Below, piece by piece: positions 1 to 29,997 of a stretch of DNA of 47,637 nucleotides. Positions within the stretch are counted from its first letter, which is position 1; every line of letters begins with the position of its first letter. The notes beneath the pieces were generated by a model. That model was not told where the DNA came from. It saw nothing but the letters and a program-made list of their open reading frames with translations, and made no database searches. Location: the IMG/VR virus record IMGVR_UViG_3300009168_000020, positions 1-47,637 of that record. One strand, given 5' to 3'. The translations under genes were made by a program, and so were the position numbers. This DNA comes from a virus.

Positions 1-123
1 CAGGTCATTGTTGATTTCCTGCTGAACACCGCGAAGTTTGAGACCGACATCAAGAAGGCTACCAAGTCCTTCAAGAATATGGGGAAGGAACTTACGGCTG
101 CCGGAAAGACTATGACTGCCGGA
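1..123. repeat. Terminal direct repeat, left copy
   Basis: Bases 1-123 are identical to 47515-47637. The tape-measure reading frame continues in phase across the join, so the repeat marks closure of a circular or terminally redundant molecule of about 47,514 bp. Whether the overlap is an assembly artefact or real terminal redundancy cannot be told from the sequence; its position inside a gene argues against a physical end. Confidence 0.95.
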
Positions 124-3024
124 GTCACCTTGCCTCTGGTTGCCGCCGGCGCCGCAGTGGTCAAGTTCGCCAACGACTTTGACGAGGGCATGGACAAGAT
201 CCGGTCTGGGACGGGAGCGACCGGGAAAAACCTCGAGAGTCTCGGACAGAGCATGAAGAACGTCATGTCCGGAGTCCCGCAGGGCGTAACAGATGTATCT
301 TCGGCGATCACCGATCTGAATCAACGCCTCGGGCTGACCGGGAAACCGCTCGAGGAAATGGTTTCCCAGATGCTCAACCTCTCTCGGATAACCGGGACGG
401 ATGTGGGGCCGTTGATAAAGTCGACGACCGAACTATTCTCCAAATGGTCCATCGAAACCGAGAAACAGTCCGGGGCCCTGGATTATTTATATAAAACCAG
501 CCAAGCTACCGGCGTAGGCATTCAACGCCTCACAGATCTCAGCGTCCAATTTGCCACACCCTTGAAAAACGTCGGTCTTGGTCTTGAAGATGCAGCCGTA
601 ATGATGGCCCAATGGGAAAAGGAAGGGGTCAACGTTGAACAGGCTGTCATGGGTCTCACAAAAGGCATGTCTGCATTTGCCAAGGCTGGCCAGGAACCCG
701 CAGAAGCTCTGAATCAACTGCAATTATCCATAAAGGGCGCTGGGAGCGAAACGGAGGCAATGGCGATCGCGGTCAAGGCCTTCGGGACCAGAGCTGGTCC
801 GGAACTTGCCAAAGCCATCCGAGAGGGCCGATTCAGCATTGAGGAACTCGTTCAGAGAATATCAGAGAGCGGAGACACCATCAACCAAGCCGCTGCGGAT
901 ACCATGTCCTTTAGCGAAAAAATGGGAATCCTCGGCAACAGGGTAGCTCTGGCCGCCGCGCCGTTGGGAGACGCGCTACTGAAGGCATTCGACAAGCTGA
1001 TGCCTTACATTGAAAAGGCAATCAACTTTGTGACCGGCCTGGTGGAGAAGTTTTCTAAGCTGCCCGAATCAACTCAGATGACAGTAATCGCTCTTGCCGC
1101 GGTTGCAGCGGCTATCGGTCCAGTCCTACTCGTTTTGGGCAGCATGGCAACGGGGATATCGACGCTATCGCCGATGTTTGTCGGGCTATCATTCGGCATT
1201 ACCGGAACGGTTAGCGCCTTCCGCGCTCTGGCCGGAGCTCTTACATGGCTCGGCCCAATAGGGATGCTTACCTCAAATGTCGGGGCGCTAATCACGGCAT
1301 TCGGACCATTGCCCGTCATTATTGCCTCTGTTGGCGCTGCCTTTGCGGGTTGGGAAATTGGAAAGTGGCTGAACCAATTTGAATCTGTCAGAAAAGCCGG
1401 GGAGGCCGTTGCTGCCGTCCTATTAAAAGTCACGGGAACGGCGCCCAATGTAGGTGGAGCCTTAGGGAACCTCGAAGGAACCACTCAACGTCTGGCGGAC
1501 AAGCTTAAGTCTCTCGGCGTCAATGTCGATCGCTTCGCAAATGAGACCGTTGAGAATTGGGCCACAAGAGTAAACACGGCAGCCAAAGCCCACAAGGAAC
1601 TGAGGCCTCAGATCGAACAAGTCACCAAGGTCACCGATACGGCGGGCAAAGCAATCGCAGCGACGGCCATAAGCGTGGATGATCTTGGAAAGAAAACCAA
1701 GGATCTGACTGCGGAGATAAAGGACGCCTATGCCCCATTTAACAAGCTAACGAAGCAGATCGAAGATGAGATGAAGATTGTCGGCAACGTGGCGCCCATC
1801 CAGAAGCATTATGCCGTGATCATGCAAGCGGCAACCGAGCAGATTCGACTCGGGGGAACGCTCTCAAACGCCCAGGTGAAGCTGCTCGAAGAAGCCTATG
1901 CGATGGATCGAGTCAGAATCGCGTCGGACAAACTTGACCCCAGCCTCATGGACCTTTCCGAAACATCGATTGACCTGATTGCAAACTTGAAGGATCTGAA
2001 GGAATCCACAGAAGATGCCTATGCGGCAATCCAAAACATGAAGCCTTCAAATCCCTTTGAAAACCCGGCCGGCATGTTCCCGGAACTTAATAAATTCATT
2101 GTCGAGGTCCCAGGCGATTTTGAGAAAGCGACCGGCAAGGCGTCGGAATCGATGAACGACCTGGGTCGCTCCGTTTCGACCACTCTCACCAACATGACGC
2201 AGGACCTGGCCGAAAAGCTGACCAAGTGGGCAGGACCATTCCAGGATTTTGCCAAAGCCGCCTTCTCGTCTTTGATGGAGGGGCTATTCAATCCACTTAT
2301 CAGCAAAATGACCGAAGTCGGGAATCAGATCGGGGACTGGCTTGGAGGAATATTTGGAAAAGGCGGAGGAGCGACCGGTTCTATTTTGGGCGGAGGTGCA
2401 TCGACCGCAGGCGGAGGGGTCGCTAGTGCTGGAGGCGGCGCGGCGTCTGCAGCAGGATCTGCCGCCAGTTTTGGAACGATGGCCCTAGCCAGCGCGATTG
2501 GAGGAGCTGTCTCGGGAATCATTGGCCTGTTCAAAGACCGCGGGGACATGGACGAAATCGAGCGGAACACGCGGGAAACTGCTATCGATGTTCATGGCCT
2601 GCGCGGGGAATCGGCTTATTGGATTCTTGGTTCGCTTTTGGAAATCCAGAAAGCCAGTAGCGAAGCGCGAGATCACATAAAAGCCTATCTGAATTTACTT
2701 GAGCCGATTGCAAACGCTATTGCCAGCATTGGCACAGTCGCCCCAGTTCCAGCGCTCGCCTCTGGCACAAGCTATGTTCCAAACGACATGCTTGCCTATC
2801 TGCATCGCGGGGAGGCCGTTGTCCCGGCCAGTCAGAACCGGTCATTTTCCTACCAAGGGGGCGGCATCAACATCAACCTGGCGATCAACGGCGGATCGGA
2901 AGACATTGTCCAGACGGTTAAGAACAAGGTCATCCCGATCCTGAAGCAGGAAATGGCGGGCGGGAATACTGGATTCCGAGAAGCCGTTGTCCGGGCCTAC
3001 GGACATACAGTGAGGGCCTACTGA
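1..3024 (+). CDS. Tail tape measure protein (main part, 5' end at 47497)
   Basis: This gene sets the length of the phage tail and lies inside the tail tube until DNA ejection. The true start is ATG at 47497, and the frame runs through the contig join, giving about 1,013 residues. The N-terminal third resembles TP901/PhageMin_Tail tape measures: the segment around MGKELTAAGKTMTAG, then a long alpha-helical region with motifs such as TGTDVGPLIKSTTELF. Hydrophobic Ala/Gly/Leu-rich stretches lie near bases 1075-1360, and a Gly/Ala/Ser-rich linker lies at about 2340-2480. It follows the assembly-chaperone pair and an HK97 gp10-like gene, as expected for a siphovirus. The stop overlaps the next ATG by one base. 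Confidence 0.95.
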   Translation, partial: QVIVDFLLNTAKFETDIKKATKSFKNMGKELTAAGKTMTAGVTLPLVAAGAAVVKFANDFDEGMDKIRSGTGATGKNLESLGQSMKNVMSGVPQGVTDVSSAITDLNQRLGLTGKPLEEMVSQMLNLSRITGTDVGPLIKSTTELFSKWSIETEKQSGALDYLYKTSQATGVGIQRLTDLSVQFATPLKNVGLGLEDAAVMMAQWEKEGVNVEQAVMGLTKGMSAFAKAGQEPAEALNQLQLSIKGAGSETEAMAIAVKAFGTRAGPELAKAIREGRFSIEELVQRISESGDTINQAAADTMSFSEKMGILGNRVALAAAPLGDALLKAFDKLMPYIEKAINFVTGLVEKFSKLPESTQMTVIALAAVAAAIGPVLLVLGSMATGISTLSPMFVGLSFGITGTVSAFRALAGALTWLGPIGMLTSNVGALITAFGPLPVIIASVGAAFAGWEIGKWLNQFESVRKAGEAVAAVLLKVTGTAPNVGGALGNLEGTTQRLADKLKSLGVNVDRFANETVENWATRVNTAAKAHKELRPQIEQVTKVTDTAGKAIAATAISVDDLGKKTKDLTAEIKDAYAPFNKLTKQIEDEMKIVGNVAPIQKHYAVIMQAATEQIRLGGTLSNAQVKLLEEAYAMDRVRIASDKLDPSLMDLSETSIDLIANLKDLKESTEDAYAAIQNMKPSNPFENPAGMFPELNKFIVEVPGDFEKATGKASESMNDLGRSVSTTLTNMTQDLAEKLTKWAGPFQDFAKAAFSSLMEGLFNPLISKMTEVGNQIGDWLGGIFGKGGGATGSILGGGASTAGGGVASAGGGAASAAGSAASFGTMALASAIGGAVSGIIGLFKDRGDMDEIERNTRETAIDVHGLRGESAYWILGSLLEIQKASSEARDHIKAYLNLLEPIANAIASIGTVAPVPALASGTSYVPNDMLAYLHRGEAVVPASQNRSFSYQGGGININLAINGGSEDIVQTVKNKVIPILKQEMAGGNTGFREAVVRAYGHTVRAY

Positions 3025-3797
3025 TGCCAGGCGCATATCTTGCAACCAACCTAATTACCTCAGCGGCAACGATCACTCCCAGCACCGAGGACACCGCTTA
3101 CCCAAGGGCGAATCTCTATGACAAGCAGGCGGCTCGGGTGTTCAAGGGGACCTCGCTGACGAGTCTTACAATCCTGATCGACTTTGAGGCCTCCGTCCAG
3201 GCAGACACCATCTCACTCATCAACCACAACCTGACTGCCAGCGCTGTACTGAGCCTGAAGGCCGGATCCGGAAGCCCTCCGAGCACGGTAGTAGCTACTC
3301 CTGTTTATCGCCAGCACGACCTCTGGAAGGCGTTTACTGCGGTCTCTGCGCGCTATTGGCTTTTGACTATAACGGACAGCAACTCCGTGGCTATCCAGAT
3401 CGGTCAGCTTCTGATCGGGAACCGGACCGTCTTCCCGCGCGCGCGCCGGATCGGCGAGAGCTACCGTCCCGCACAGAAGCGCAACACGATCTCCGGGGAG
3501 ACCTATGCCGGAGTGCTTTGGAATTACCATCTGTTCGAGCGCCGGGAATTCAATCCGAGCTTCCGGGTTTCTTCTGCTGCAGAGTTGGCCGTTCTGACCG
3601 CTCTGGACGCCTCAGTCTTCGGCAATGTCTATCCATTCGTGTACATCCCGGATGCCTCTGGAGTTGACGTGTACTACGTCCGCAAAGAGCAGGACTACCA
3701 GCCGCAGGAGATCGGGAGACTGTCCGGTCTTGAACTGGCCCACGACTACCAAATGACCCTCGTGGAAGAATCGCGGGGATTGGAGATTAAATTATAA
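3024..3797 (+). CDS. Putative distal tail / minor tail protein
   Basis: A 257-residue protein directly downstream of the tape measure and sharing one base with its stop. The order tape measure, then a 250-residue beta-rich protein, then a large hub-like protein is typical of siphovirus tail tips, so a distal-tail role is likely. The composition is beta-strand-like with no signal peptide. The segment with IGNRTVFPRARRIG and the central W-N-Y-H-L-F-E-R-R-E-F-N run resemble unnamed minor tail proteins. I recognise no catalytic motif. Confidence 0.6.
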   Translation: MPGAYLATNLITSAATITPSTEDTAYPRANLYDKQAARVFKGTSLTSLTILIDFEASVQADTISLINHNLTASAVLSLKAGSGSPPSTVVATPVYRQHDLWKAFTAVSARYWLLTITDSNSVAIQIGQLLIGNRTVFPRARRIGESYRPAQKRNTISGETYAGVLWNYHLFERREFNPSFRVSSAAELAVLTALDASVFGNVYPFVYIPDASGVDVYYVRKEQDYQPQEIGRLSGLELAHDYQMTLVEESRGLEIKL

Positions 3798-25249: not shown

Positions 25250-25834
25250 ATGCAGAGCGCGGATACCTCAACCAAAACTTTACCTGCTGATAAGATATCA
25301 CCTGTCTACTACTCAAGTAGTGTGTATGCTGTAAGTACGGATGAGGCGTGGAAAAACGTCGAAGGATGGCCATATGAGGTATCCAATTACGGCAGGGTAA
25401 GGCGTACTATTCCGGTCAAGGGAACCAAAGCGGGGGATATCATTCGGGGCGGCAGCTCCGGCAAATACCCCAATGTTATCCTCTGCTTGAATGGTGTCCA
25501 TAAGACAATTCAAAGGCATCTCCTGGTAGCCAGAGCCTTTCTTGGCCCATGTCCTGAAGGCAAGGAATGTCACCACAAAGATCATAATCCGCAGAACCCT
25601 TCAGAGTCAAATCTCGAATACGTAACCAGTTCACAAAATAAGCAAAAAGCCGTGGAGCATGGCTACCGTGGAACGGCCCGCTATAACGCCAAAATCACAG
25701 ATCAGAAGGCAAAGCAGATCCTTGACCTACGCGCCGATGGATGGACGGTAAGAGAAATCATGGATCTGCTTAATGCCCCTGAGTCTATCACATACCACGT
25801 AATCCGGCGCGACAACTGGAAACACATTTCATAA
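25250..25834 (+). CDS. NUMOD4-HNH homing endonuclease
   Basis: A 194-residue protein with the standard order: NUMOD4 motif (WKNVEGWPYEVSNYGRVRR, about residues 35-53), HNH core (HLLVARAFLG, then GKECHHKDHNPQNP and NLEYVTSSQN, about 89-130), and a C-terminal HTH-like segment (AKQILDLRADGWTVREIMDLL). It is a mobile homing gene between the RHH-like and initiator genes. It shows no intron. Confidence 0.9.
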   Translation: MQSADTSTKTLPADKISPVYYSSSVYAVSTDEAWKNVEGWPYEVSNYGRVRRTIPVKGTKAGDIIRGGSSGKYPNVILCLNGVHKTIQRHLLVARAFLGPCPEGKECHHKDHNPQNPSESNLEYVTSSQNKQKAVEHGYRGTARYNAKITDQKAKQILDLRADGWTVREIMDLLNAPESITYHVIRRDNWKHIS

Positions 25835-26701: not shown

Positions 26702-26883
26702 AAGAACAAGTCTGGGACTACTGCACCAAATGCCCGCGCATCTACGGCCCGCAGCCGCTTGTGGGCAACACTGGGCTGTGCAAGGTGCATGCGATCGACA
26801 GGAATCATAAGGCGTATGAGAAACGGGTTCCAGGGAGAAGGGGTAGGAAACGCAACTTAAAGCGAGGTGAATATGTCTGTTAG
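26698..26883 (+). CDS. Small zinc-finger-like protein, GTG start
   Basis: Starts at GTG 26698, overlapping the initiator stop (GTGA). The 61-residue product has YCTKCPRIYGPQPLVG with later Cys/His (LCKVH) and a basic tail (PGRRGRKRNLKRG). It probably binds nucleic acid. Confidence 0.5.
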   Translation: MKEQVWDYCTKCPRIYGPQPLVGNTGLCKVHAIDRNHKAYEKRVPGRRGRKRNLKRGEYVC

Positions 26884-27340
26884 AAAACTGCCTTTATGGA
26901 AAAGTTTAGTTGAGGATCTGATAACCGAAGGCGTTGAACATGGAAAGGTTTACGACGCGGCGCGTTTCGAGGAGGCGCTCTCGTGCAAACGCGGAACGCG
27001 CGAATTCGGGCTCGCGGTCCATGAAATCAAAATGGAACTTGAACGCCATGGATTCTATCTGCAAGGCCATGCGATTCGCGAAGGAAGCCTAACCATCATT
27101 CCACCGGAAAAACATATCAGCATCGCAAAAGCATCTGAGCGCCGTAACCAGAAGAACCGGCGTCGGGCGATTGCACTGCTTGGAGCCACAGATCGTGAAT
27201 TGCTCCCAAAGAAAATCAAACCATTCCATGAAAAGATCCTGATGCGATTGCAGATCAAGCAATTGATCGAGCATCGCGCGGGAAGGATTCATGGATATTT
27301 GCAGAAGAAAGCTCCAAAGTTGTTGGAGATAAGGGCATGA
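26873..27340 (+). CDS. Hypothetical protein, 155 residues
   Basis: ATG 26873 follows AGCGAGGTGA. The protein is helical and basic, with a conserved-looking segment RGTREFGLAVHEIKMELERHG that resembles a DNA-binding or RNA-binding helical domain, and a long C-terminal helix. No family is recognised. It ends 14 bases before the first array repeat, so it may share a transcript with the array. Confidence 0.55.
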   Translation: MSVRKLPLWKSLVEDLITEGVEHGKVYDAARFEEALSCKRGTREFGLAVHEIKMELERHGFYLQGHAIREGSLTIIPPEKHISIAKASERRNQKNRRRAIALLGATDRELLPKKIKPFHEKILMRLQIKQLIEHRAGRIHGYLQKKAPKLLEIRA

Positions 27341-27354
27341 AGCCGCAGTGTCGG

Positions 27355-27671
27355 AGAAAACCAAAATGTTGAAGCGAGCCGGTTTTGTTTAGGAAACCAA
27401 AGGAGCAAAGCGTGTCAGGTAGGCTTAGAAACCCAGTACAAGGAAGCGAGTCAGGGAAGACGAGAAATCCACCAGGTTCAAGCGTGCCATTTGGTGAAAG
27501 AAAACCAAACGAACAAAGTGAGCCATTCGTGATAAGAAACCCATCGCGCAAAAGCGTGCCAACTTCTGAAAGAAAACCATTGGAGATTAGCGTGCCAGCG
27601 TTCATGAGAAAACCATCAGTCGGAAGCGTGTCAGGGGCCAAGAGAAACCCAAGAGTAGAAAGCGAGGAACT
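27355..27671 (+). repeat. TIGR-like array 1, 36-nt period with two 9-nt spacers
   Basis: Seventeen exact 18-nt half-units fill 27355-27660, then a truncated B box reaches the next start codon. A boxes (AGAAAACCA; variants AGAAACCCA, AGAAATCCA, AGGAAACCA) start at 27355, 27391, 27427, 27463, 27499, 27535, 27571, 27607 and 27643. B boxes (AGCGTGCCA; variants AGCGAGCC, AGCGTGTCA, AGCGAGTCA, AGTGAGCCA) start 18 bases after each A. A spacers: AAATGTTGA, AAGGAGCAA, GTACAAGGA, CCAGGTTCA, AACGAACAA, TCGCGCAAA, TTGGAGATT, TCAGTCGGA, AGAGTAGAA. B spacers: GTTTTGTTT, GGTAGGCTT, GGGAAGACG, TTTGGTGAA, TTCGTGATA, ACTTCTGAA, GCGTTCATG, GGGGCCAAG. This is the layout of tandem interspaced guide RNA arrays. 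The last B box (AGCGAGGAACT) supplies the ribosome binding site of the next gene. Confidence 0.9.
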
Positions 27672-28745
27672 ATGATTAACCAAACCCTAAAATCGATATT
27701 CAGCGGATACTACGATTTGCAGAAGATGAGAATCCAAGCGGGGAACCGCATTGTCGCCAATTTCAAACTGCGCACCGGACAAAGCACTGGGACTCCCGAG
27801 TCAGAGCTTGACAAAGAGGGAAAGGACATTCTGGAAAGAGTCAGGAAAGCCTATGACTCAATGGCCGATGCAGCCGCCGATCTCCCGAGAGTGAGTAAGT
27901 TTGTCGGCAACGAAGTTATAAGCGAATACGCCGAGCTTGTACTGGCGGATTCGTATATGTCTCTGATGGCCCAAGAGGAAAGGTATTTCAAGTCAATCAA
28001 AGGAATTGTTCACAAACACCCATTCTGGAAACATTGGTTGAAGGGTGTAAGCGGAGTCGGCGAGTTGATGGCGCTTGTTATCTTGGCGCTGATCGATATT
28101 CACAAAGCCAAATACCCTTCATCGCTTTGGAAGTATGCAGGGCTTGATGTTGGACCGGATGGCGCTGGAAGGTCTAGGCAGAAACAACACCTTGAGGAAA
28201 AGGAATATACAAACAGAGATGGCGAGTTGTCCACTCGAGTTGGAATCACGTTTAATCCCGTGCTGAAAACAAAGCTGTTGGGAGTGCTTGGACCGTCATT
28301 CCTGAAGGCTGGAAACGAGAAGTATGCAAAGATTTATTACGATTACAGAAACCGCCTTGAGAATCATCCGAAGTACAAAGACGGCGGAACGGCCCCAACA
28401 AAAAGCAGTAACGGAAAGAAGATGCCGTCAGCAAAGAGTCACCGCCACGATATGGCAACCCGCTACATGGTCAAGATGTTCCTGATCGACCTATATGCGG
28501 CGTGGCGGGAATTTGAAGGGCTTGAAGTGTCAAAGCCCTATCACGAGGAGAAGTTGGGGATTGTACATAGTCATTCCATGTTAGAAAACCAAACACAAAA
28601 AGCGAGCCATTCCCGCGTAGAAAACCATACTGAAACAGCGCGTCAACTTGACGAAGAAAACCATTCAGGTATAGCGAGTCAACAATGTCCAGAATACCAA
28701 AATGGCCGAGCGAGTCATGCCTCCGAAGAAAACCGGAGTTGCTAA
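27672..28745 (+). CDS. Tas-like protein with IS110/Nop-type core (nuclease-less, TasA-like)
   Basis: A 357-residue protein between two matching arrays. Residues about 20-115 are a long alpha-helical, coiled-coil-like stretch. Residues about 122-160 hold a helix-hairpin-helix core (LKGVSGVGELMALVILALID, then SSLWKYAGLDVG) of the type found in IS110 Transposase_20 and related to snoRNP Nop domains. The IS110 N-terminal DEDD domain is absent, the usual S-G after YAGL is AGRSR, and no HNH or RuvC domain is seen. The last 53 residues are encoded by array 2 sequence and repeat E-N-x-x-x-x-A-S, so this tail is probably a by-product of the overlap. GAGGA at 27664-27668 is the ribosome binding site. 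It likely binds guide RNAs from the arrays and DNA, without cutting it itself. Confidence 0.8.
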   Translation: MINQTLKSIFSGYYDLQKMRIQAGNRIVANFKLRTGQSTGTPESELDKEGKDILERVRKAYDSMADAAADLPRVSKFVGNEVISEYAELVLADSYMSLMAQEERYFKSIKGIVHKHPFWKHWLKGVSGVGELMALVILALIDIHKAKYPSSLWKYAGLDVGPDGAGRSRQKQHLEEKEYTNRDGELSTRVGITFNPVLKTKLLGVLGPSFLKAGNEKYAKIYYDYRNRLENHPKYKDGGTAPTKSSNGKKMPSAKSHRHDMATRYMVKMFLIDLYAAWREFEGLEVSKPYHEEKLGIVHSHSMLENQTQKASHSRVENHTETARQLDEENHSGIASQQCPEYQNGRASHASEENRSC

Positions 28746-28897
28746 GCGTGCCTAATATGGTTAGAAAACCAATCGTGGTGAGCGTTCCACAAGGATTTAG
28801 AAAACCAGATTGCAGAAGTGAGTCACGTTGGGACAGAAAACCAAGAAGCGCAAGCGTGCCATATCGTCCTAGAAAACCAGAGATAGCTAGCGCGGCC
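28583..28897 (+). repeat. TIGR-like array 2, same length and phase as array 1
   Basis: Again seventeen exact 18-nt half-units (28583-28888) and a truncated B box (AGCGCGGCC, 28889-28897), so both arrays have nine A and eight complete B boxes. A boxes start at 28583 and every 36 bases to 28871; variants are AGAATACCA and AGAAAACCG. B variants include AGCGCGTCA, AGCGTTCCA, AGTGAGTCA and AGCGTGCCT. A spacers: AACACAAAA, TACTGAAAC, TTCAGGTAT, AAATGGCCG, GAGTTGCTA, ATCGTGGTG, GATTGCAGA, AGAAGCGCA, GAGATAGCT. B spacers: TTCCCGCGT, ACTTGACGA, ACAATGTCC, TGCCTCCGA, AATATGGTT, CAAGGATTT, CGTTGGGAC, TATCGTCCT. All 34 spacers of the two arrays differ. The first 163 bases lie inside the tas-like gene. 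Confidence 0.9.
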
Positions 28898-28917
28898 CGA
28901 AATCATCCGGGCCGCGC
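28890..28917 (+). terminator. Perfect GC hairpin closing array 2
   Basis: GCGCGGCCCG pairs perfectly with CGGGCCGCGC over an eight-base loop. The stem grows out of the truncated final B box. There is no T run, so it may be an RNA-processing or stabilising hairpin rather than a standard terminator. Confidence 0.65.
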
Positions 28918-28930
28918 AGTTGGAGGTGTA

Positions 28931-29107
28931 ATGGAAAAGGACCTGCTGAGAGTCGATGAAGTGGCTGCAATGTTCCATGTGAAACCTCGCACAGTAAGGC
29001 GCTGGATTAAGTCGAATCGCTTGGTTATTGTGCGCAATCCTGCGGGCCGTCCGATGATCATGCGGGCAGAAGTATACCGCTTTCTATCCCTCAACAATGG
29101 TACATAA
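28931..29107 (+). CDS. HTH_17 / excisionase-like DNA-binding protein
   Basis: ATG 28931 with a strong GGAGGTG site, giving 58 residues. The sequence LRVDEVAAMFHVKPRTVRRWIKSNRL, then PAGRPMIMRAEVYRFL, is the MerR-like HTH_17 fold used by excisionases and small DNA-bending regulators. Direct repeats spaced 10 bp overlap its 3' end, a likely binding array. With no integrase in the genome, a transcription or replication role is more likely than excision. Confidence 0.8.
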   Translation: MEKDLLRVDEVAAMFHVKPRTVRRWIKSNRLVIVRNPAGRPMIMRAEVYRFLSLNNGT

Positions 29108-29499: not shown

Positions 29500-29660
29500 G
29501 CGCCGCTGATTGGATCATCGTCTACAAACGCGAGTGCCGCTACCCCACAGACTTGATTCACTGTGGGCATCAGTACGTTAGGGGCTACAGATCAGATAGC
29601 CCAACGATCAAAACTGCAGTCAAGAGATTAAGAAAACGCAATGCCTCTCGCGCCGCGTAG
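29496..29660 (+). CDS. Small protein, 54 residues
   Basis: Starts in an ATGA overlap. The product (WIIVYKRECRYPTDLIHCGH, then a basic C-terminus VKRLRKRNASRAA) is not recognised. It overlaps the packaging HNH gene by 20 bases. Confidence 0.4.
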   Translation: MSAADWIIVYKRECRYPTDLIHCGHQYVRGYRSDSPTIKTAVKRLRKRNASRAA

Positions 29661-29997
29661 GCCGTGCACATGGCCGGGATGCAATGAGCTGACGTACTAC
29701 AGCAGATGCCCGCAGCATCAGAAGCAGGAGCGCAAAGAGATAGACAAGCGCAGAGGGACAGCGGCGCAGCGTGGGTACGATAGCAAGTGGAAGGTAGCAA
29801 GGGATTGGTACTTAGCCAATCATCCACTGTGCGTGAAGTGCAAGGCGATAGGAGCGGTGAGAGTGGCGACAGTCGTGGATCACATCGTGCCGCATAAGGG
29901 CGACATGGAGTTGTTCTGGGATCGGGATAATTGGCAGGCGCTGTGTAAGGCGTGCCATGACAGCAAGACAGCGAAGGAAGATGGGAGATGGAGATAG
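29641..29997 (+). CDS. HNH endonuclease of the packaging module
   Basis: A 118-residue HNH protein. An N-terminal Cys pair (CTWPGCNELTYYSRCPQH) and the HNH core VVDHIVPHKGDMELFWDRDNWQALCKACHDSKTAKED are complete. HNH proteins next to terminases in cos-type phages stimulate terminase cleavage at cos. It sits directly before the terminase small subunit, which supports this role. Confidence 0.88.
   Translation: MPLAPRRPCTWPGCNELTYYSRCPQHQKQERKEIDKRRGTAAQRGYDSKWKVARDWYLANHPLCVKCKAIGAVRVATVVDHIVPHKGDMELFWDRDNWQALCKACHDSKTAKEDGRWR

What the first reader, a model, noticed from the sequence alone, without database searches (positions are those of the whole stretch)
27355..28917. Two guide-RNA-like arrays around an IS110/Nop-type gene: a phage TIGR-Tas system
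The two 306-nt blocks are built from exact 18-nt half-units that alternate an A box (AGAAAACCA) and a B box (AGCGTGCCA), each followed by 9 variable bases; all 34 spacers differ. Conserved positions vary only by a few single-base changes while spacers are unrelated. That gives 36-nt units with two 9-nt spacers, the known layout of TIGR arrays, whose 36-nt RNAs guide Nop-domain Tas proteins to DNA through tandem spacers. The gene between them has the expected helix-hairpin-helix core and no nuclease domain, so this looks like a TasA-type, possibly DNA-binding or silencing, system carried by a phage.
Basis: partly seen in the sequence, partly recalled or inferred. Interest (0 to 1): 0.98.

Follow-up and report, generated by a model that had tools for sequence, protein, structure and literature searches.

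The report
Phage TIGR-TasA locus with two arrays
This tailed phage carries a TIGR-TasA system, a recently described RNA-guided DNA-binding system in which one protein is aimed by short RNAs bearing two 9-letter guides; it is a clean new example of a known kind, with two guide arrays and no known targets.

Summary
Two dual-repeat arrays (27341-27666 and 28569-28894) flank a 357-codon gene (27672-28745) in a tailed-phage record. [quoted passage not shown] The protein passes NCBI's curated TIGR-Tas model (136 bits, cut-off 100). Its predicted fold matches solved TasH (Z 19.5) and TasR (Z 18.0) without their nuclease domains, so it is a TasA. IMG/VR holds at least 183 relatives; 73 of 80 fetched carry such arrays. 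Among related phages, spacers are kept or lost as edge-A-loop-B units (11% breaks inside units, 36% between), independent support for the 36-nt guide. No guide matches its own phage, and guides of relatives show no excess against 1.7 Mb of TIGR-phage DNA. The tasA frame runs 59 codons into array 2; this tail is predicted disordered and no longer than chance allows. Verdict: new member of a known kind.

The parts
27341..27666 (+). TIGR array 1: nine 36-nt units (18 spacers of 9 nt), 5'-truncated edge AGCCG to 3'-truncated edge AGCGAG; begins directly after the stop codon of the upstream gene
27672..28745 (+). tasA: Nop/IS110-type RNA-binding protein with no nuclease domain; conserved part is residues 1-298 (to about 28565)
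28566..28745 (+). array-encoded tail of the tasA ORF (59 codons and stop, pLDDT below 50, not conserved)
28569..28894 (+). TIGR array 2: nine 36-nt units (18 spacers of 9 nt), 5'-truncated edge AGTCA to 3'-truncated edge AGCGCG; overlaps the 3' end of the tasA ORF
28890..28917 (+). 10-bp G+C-rich hairpin that absorbs the last truncated edge; terminator-like array end, but without a U-run
   Evidence: z = -5.4; not picked up by the terminator scan
26867..27340 (+). upstream gene of unknown function (157 aa), whose stop codon abuts array 1; probably on the same transcript (inference)
   Evidence: no family match
28931..29107 (+). downstream small helix-turn-helix (BldC/excisionase-like) protein, 58 aa; its likely ribosome-binding site follows the array-2 hairpin

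Best explanation
This is a phage-borne TIGR-TasA system. Both arrays are transcribed on the + strand with the surrounding genes and cut in the edge repeats into up to 18 tigRNAs of 36 nt. A TasA dimer holds each tigRNA by the AG...CCA boxes. Spacer A pairs with one strand and spacer B with the other strand of an 18-bp DNA site (reading A followed by the reverse complement of B), opening and bending the DNA without cutting it. The likely benefit is blocking transcription, replication or maintenance of DNA other than the phage's own, that is, host or rival elements. Shown here: array anatomy, protein family and fold, lack of a nuclease domain, unit-wise inheritance in relatives, no self-match. 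Inferred from the family: processing, RNA binding, strand-split targeting. Speculative: the biological target and benefit.
For: Array anatomy including both truncated edges. Statistical strength. NCBIfam NF052498 136.1 bits, cut-off 100. PDB sequence matches only to TasR 9mty and TasH 21kl. Fold matches TasH Z 19.5, TasR Z 18.0, IS110 Z 14.4. The characterised Salicola phage CGphi29 array has near-identical boxes, AGACAACCA and AGCGAGCCA (named SpTIGR in PMC12045711). 73 of 80 fetched relatives carry similar arrays. Spacers A and B of a unit are co-inherited: switch fraction 0.114 inside units, 0.357 between. No guide matches the phage itself with 0 or 1 mismatch in any geometry tested.
Against: No small-RNA data. 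No convincing natural target was found for any guide. No promoter was found on the + strand nearby. The array-2 hairpin lacks a U-run, and the tasA ORF is read into array 2, which could interfere with guide production. The predicted model has moderate confidence (mean pLDDT 68.8).
Confidence: 0.9

Rival explanations
1. The gene is an IS110-family transposase (as PHROGs labels its family), and the repeats are unrelated or bridge-RNA-like sequences that guide transposition.
For: Pfam PF02371 just above cut-off; phrog_4285 labelled transposase; IS110 structures match at Z about 14.
Against: NCBIfam's IS110 model gives 26.8 bits, cut-off 140, while the TIGR-Tas model passes. The N-terminal DEDD catalytic domain of IS110 is missing: the model aligns to IS621 only from its residue 126. 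Relatives carry arrays of the same layout, not single bridge RNAs.
Confidence: 0.02
2. TasA and its arrays regulate the phage's own genes (RNA-guided repression or lysogeny control) instead of acting on foreign DNA.
For: TasA has no nuclease, so it would not damage its own genome; it lies among phage replication and packaging genes and next to a small HTH gene.
Against: Best own-genome matches of all 18 guides are at chance level in every geometry. Guides of relatives show no excess matches to TIGR-phage DNA.
Confidence: 0.08
3. The periodic blocks are protein-coding repeats (part of the tasA product) and not guide RNAs.
For: The tasA ORF is open through five units of array 2; 18-nt half-units keep the frame.
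Against: Array 1 has stops in all three forward frames. The tail is absent or much shorter in relatives and predicted disordered; the open run is within chance (P = 0.09).
Confidence: 0.01

Closest known systems
TIGR-TasH of Salicola phage CGphi29 (SpTIGR; structures 9w04, 9vzx, 21kl)
   Same: Same array layout with near-identical boxes (AGACAACCA / AGCGAGCCA); same Nop-type core (Z 19.5); also in a tailed phage.
   Different: TasH has an N-terminal HNH nuclease region of about 65 residues that is absent here; in the Salicola stretch I read, the array lies only downstream; spacers are unrelated.
TIGR-TasA (for example FpTIGR of Flavonifractor plautii, PMC12045711)
   Same: Nop domain alone next to a dual-repeat array; 9-nt spacers, 18-nt combined guide, 36-nt RNAs reported.
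   Different: Direct sequence comparison with FpTasA was not made. Here arrays lie on both sides and the second overlaps the tasA ORF.
TIGR-TasR (9mty)
   Same: Same RNA-binding core (Z 18.0) and array logic.
   Different: TasR has a RuvC nuclease; its boxes are UG...CCA, here AG...CCA in both edge and loop.
IS110/IS621 RNA-guided recombinase and box C/D Nop5
   Same: Nop-type RNA-binding fold (Z about 14 and about 7; the latter alone would not be conclusive).
   Different: No DEDD recombinase domain and no bridge RNA; guides lie in arrays.

Membership tests
TIGR-Tas (dual-repeat array type) | Array of two alternating 8-12-nt repeats separated by about 9-nt spacers | tested here: met
[quoted passage not shown]
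   AGCCG/AGTCA at the starts, AGCGAG/AGCGCG at the ends
TIGR-Tas (dual-repeat array type) | Rho-independent terminator after the array | tested here: inconclusive
   Strong hairpin at 28890-28917 but no U-run; array 1 runs into the tasA gene
TIGR-Tas (dual-repeat array type) | Box C/D motifs shared between edge and loop repeats | tested here: met
   Both start AG and end CCA or TCA in nearly all copies; UG of TasR is replaced by AG in both, as in the Salicola TasH array
TIGR-Tas | Adjacent Tas protein with Nop/IS110-type RNA-binding domain | tested here: met
   NCBIfam NF052498 above cut-off; fold matches TasH and TasR
TIGR-Tas | 36-nt RNAs processed in the edge repeats | not testable with these tools
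   No RNA data; unit-wise inheritance in relatives is consistent
TIGR-Tas | Tandem-spacer targeting of both DNA strands | not testable with these tools
   Natural targets sought, none convincing
TasA subtype | Nop domain only, no HNH or RuvC | tested here: met
   Model residue 1 aligns to TasH residue 66, and residue 3 to TasR residue 111
IS110 transposase | N-terminal DEDD catalytic domain plus bridge RNA | tested here: not met
   Catalytic domain absent from the protein; NF033542 at 26.8 bits, cut-off 140

The most novel reading that the evidence does not exclude
Phage TIGR-TasA loci are a fast-changing guide store in which whole 36-nt guide units are gained, lost, duplicated and moved without any dedicated adaptation gene, and serve to hold down non-self DNA without cutting it. 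The unit-wise turnover in relatives would show how TIGR arrays evolve, a question the discovery paper left open.
Probability: 0.4. Interest if true: 0.6.

Novelty: new member of a known kind. Interest (0 to 1): 0.42.

Why it matters
TIGR systems were described in 2025, and the source of their spacers, the way arrays grow and the job of the nuclease-free TasA remain open. This locus is a compact phage example with 18 guides around one small protein. The family around it, with dozens of arrays in closely related phages, makes array evolution measurable: guides turn over as whole edge-A-loop-B units. The lack of self-matches argues against self-regulation.

Tried and rejected
Self-targets: 18 guides against the 47.6-kb record in four arrangements (gaps of 0-2 for two of them); best matches equal to shuffled pairings. 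Targets in relatives: 938 unique guide pairs (in one search those with 8-10-nt spacers) against 0.67 Mb and then 1.74 Mb of TIGR-phage DNA; no excess of A.rc(B) over control geometries or shuffled pairs. The one exact match (an L036 guide in L017, 2-bp gap) is A+T-rich and compatible with chance. Exact scans of IMG/VR for three window guides gave 1, 2 and 2 hits against 1 for a control; none of the hit stretches resembles the window phage. Coding function of the tasA tail: open run not longer than chance (P = 0.09). No Rfam family, no tRNA, no PADLOC match. No relative found among plasmids. Below Nop5, the matches look like ordinary coiled-coil similarities.

Full report
What is there. The window is a whole IMG/VR viral record of 47,637 bases. 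It encodes a tailed phage: terminase small and large subunits (30081, 30541), capsid/protease protein (32172), portal (34412), tape measure (79), a replication-initiation-like protein (25877), an N6/N4 DNA methylase (23859) and a Sak4-like protein (19597). Its terminase is about 50% identical to those of many phages, so no host can be named from it.

The arrays. [quoted passage not shown] The consensus edge is AGCG(T/A)G(C/T)CA and the loop AGAAAACCA. In all complete edges position 4 is G and position 7 is C or T, so the variation there keeps G-C or G-U possible (read from the sequence; the pairing itself is inference by analogy with TasR). Each array begins with a 5'-truncated edge and ends with a 3'-truncated edge, as reported for TIGR arrays. 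Period-36 identity stands about 11 sd (array 1) and 10 sd (array 2) above the window mean.

The protein. The ORF 27672-28745 passes NCBIfam NF052498 (TIGR-Tas, 136 bits, cut-off 100), while the IS110 model is far below its cut-off. PDB sequence searches find only TasR 9mty and TasH 21kl. The AlphaFold2 model (mean pLDDT 68.8; much of the core 80-93; residues 298-357 below 50) matches TasH (Z 19.5), TasR (Z 18.0), IS110 (Z 14.4) and Nop5/Nop56 (Z about 7, which alone would not be conclusive). It aligns from its first residues to TasH residue 66 and TasR residue 111, so the nuclease domains are missing: a TasA.

Relatives. A profile scan of IMG/VR found 183 relatives; 80 were kept and 73 have a chain of at least four boxes in phase (some records are near-duplicates). 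Boxes vary by clade (AACGAGTCA/AGAAAACCA, AGCGAGCCA/AGCAACCCA, AGCGAGCCA/AGACAACCA), with the 18-nt phase kept. The Salicola phage CGphi29 locus, whose TasH was characterised in PMC12045711, has the last pair. None of the window's spacers occurs in another array.

How arrays change. In 34 pairs of loci with partly shared arrays, neighbouring spacers inside a unit (A then B) differ in shared state in 11.4% of cases, neighbours across an edge repeat in 35.7%. Alignments show whole units inserted, lost, replaced and moved while the general order is kept. Some arrays hold repeated units or spacers. The pairs are not independent, so these figures describe a trend and are no formal test. The pattern supports the edge-A-loop-B unit as the thing inherited.

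Targets. For the window's 18 guides, no own-genome site fits better than shuffled pairings. For the guides of relatives, exact and one-mismatch sites in 1.74 Mb of TIGR-phage DNA are about as frequent as in control geometries. Single-guide scans of IMG/VR are at control level. The guides therefore do not detectably aim at their own or related TIGR-bearing genomes; host genomes could not be tested because the host is unknown.

The overlap. The tasA frame runs on for 59 codons into array 2, since 18-nt half-units keep the frame. Most relatives stop before the array; L005, L047, L050 and L054 show shorter tails. Shuffled spacers give a run as long in 9% of cases. I read the tail as incidental; translation may still affect guide production from the first five units, which is testable.

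Mechanism. By membership, the arrays should yield up to 18 tigRNAs that bring a TasA dimer to 18-bp sites without cutting. In PMC12045711 a TasA was shown to bind 36-nt RNAs, while strand-split DNA targeting was shown for TasR and TasH; DNA binding by TasA is inferred from them. The target order A followed by rc(B) is my derivation from the 8-nt 3' overhangs reported there. Interference with rival or host DNA is the most likely use (about 0.6), self-regulation less so (0.08), other uses such as helping recombination stay open.

Novelty. Known kind, new member. Arrays on both sides are within the published range (arrays upstream and/or downstream); the overlap of array 2 with tasA is a local variation. 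The useful new point is unit-wise turnover across relatives.

Noticed in passing
L013/L015, L067/L071, L077/L080, L022/L023: TIGR arrays in related phages gain, lose, replace and move whole 36-nt units; the same unit can sit at different places (GAGCGCGGG/TTTGTCGAG in L077 and L080).
   Followed up: partly
L005 6881-7087 and L006 1398-1604: Two phage contigs 99.7% identical differ within the array by two substitutions that both fall in one 9-nt spacer (AGATGAACG versus AGATTATCG).
   Followed up: no
L010 9114-9908 and 11222-11608: Acidobacterial (Acidipila) MAG contig with a TIGR-TasA locus and long arrays on both sides, including tandem copies of the same unit (GGAAAAATA / AGGCTATTT).
   Followed up: no
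L047, L050, L054 near the tas stop codon: Other relatives in which the tas ORF reads about 30 codons into the array.
   Followed up: partly
L017, minus strand, about position 3700: A guide of L036 (AAATCTAAT / GAACAAATA) matches L017 exactly with a 2-bp gap, and L087 with one mismatch; compatible with chance.
   Followed up: partly
window 25250-25834 and 29641-29997: Two stand-alone HNH genes near the TIGR locus (NUMOD4/HNH_3 and HNH); the second lies just before the terminase small subunit.
   Followed up: no
window 79-3024: The tape-measure profile match starts at profile position about 222, so the record is probably cut inside the tape-measure gene.
   Followed up: no
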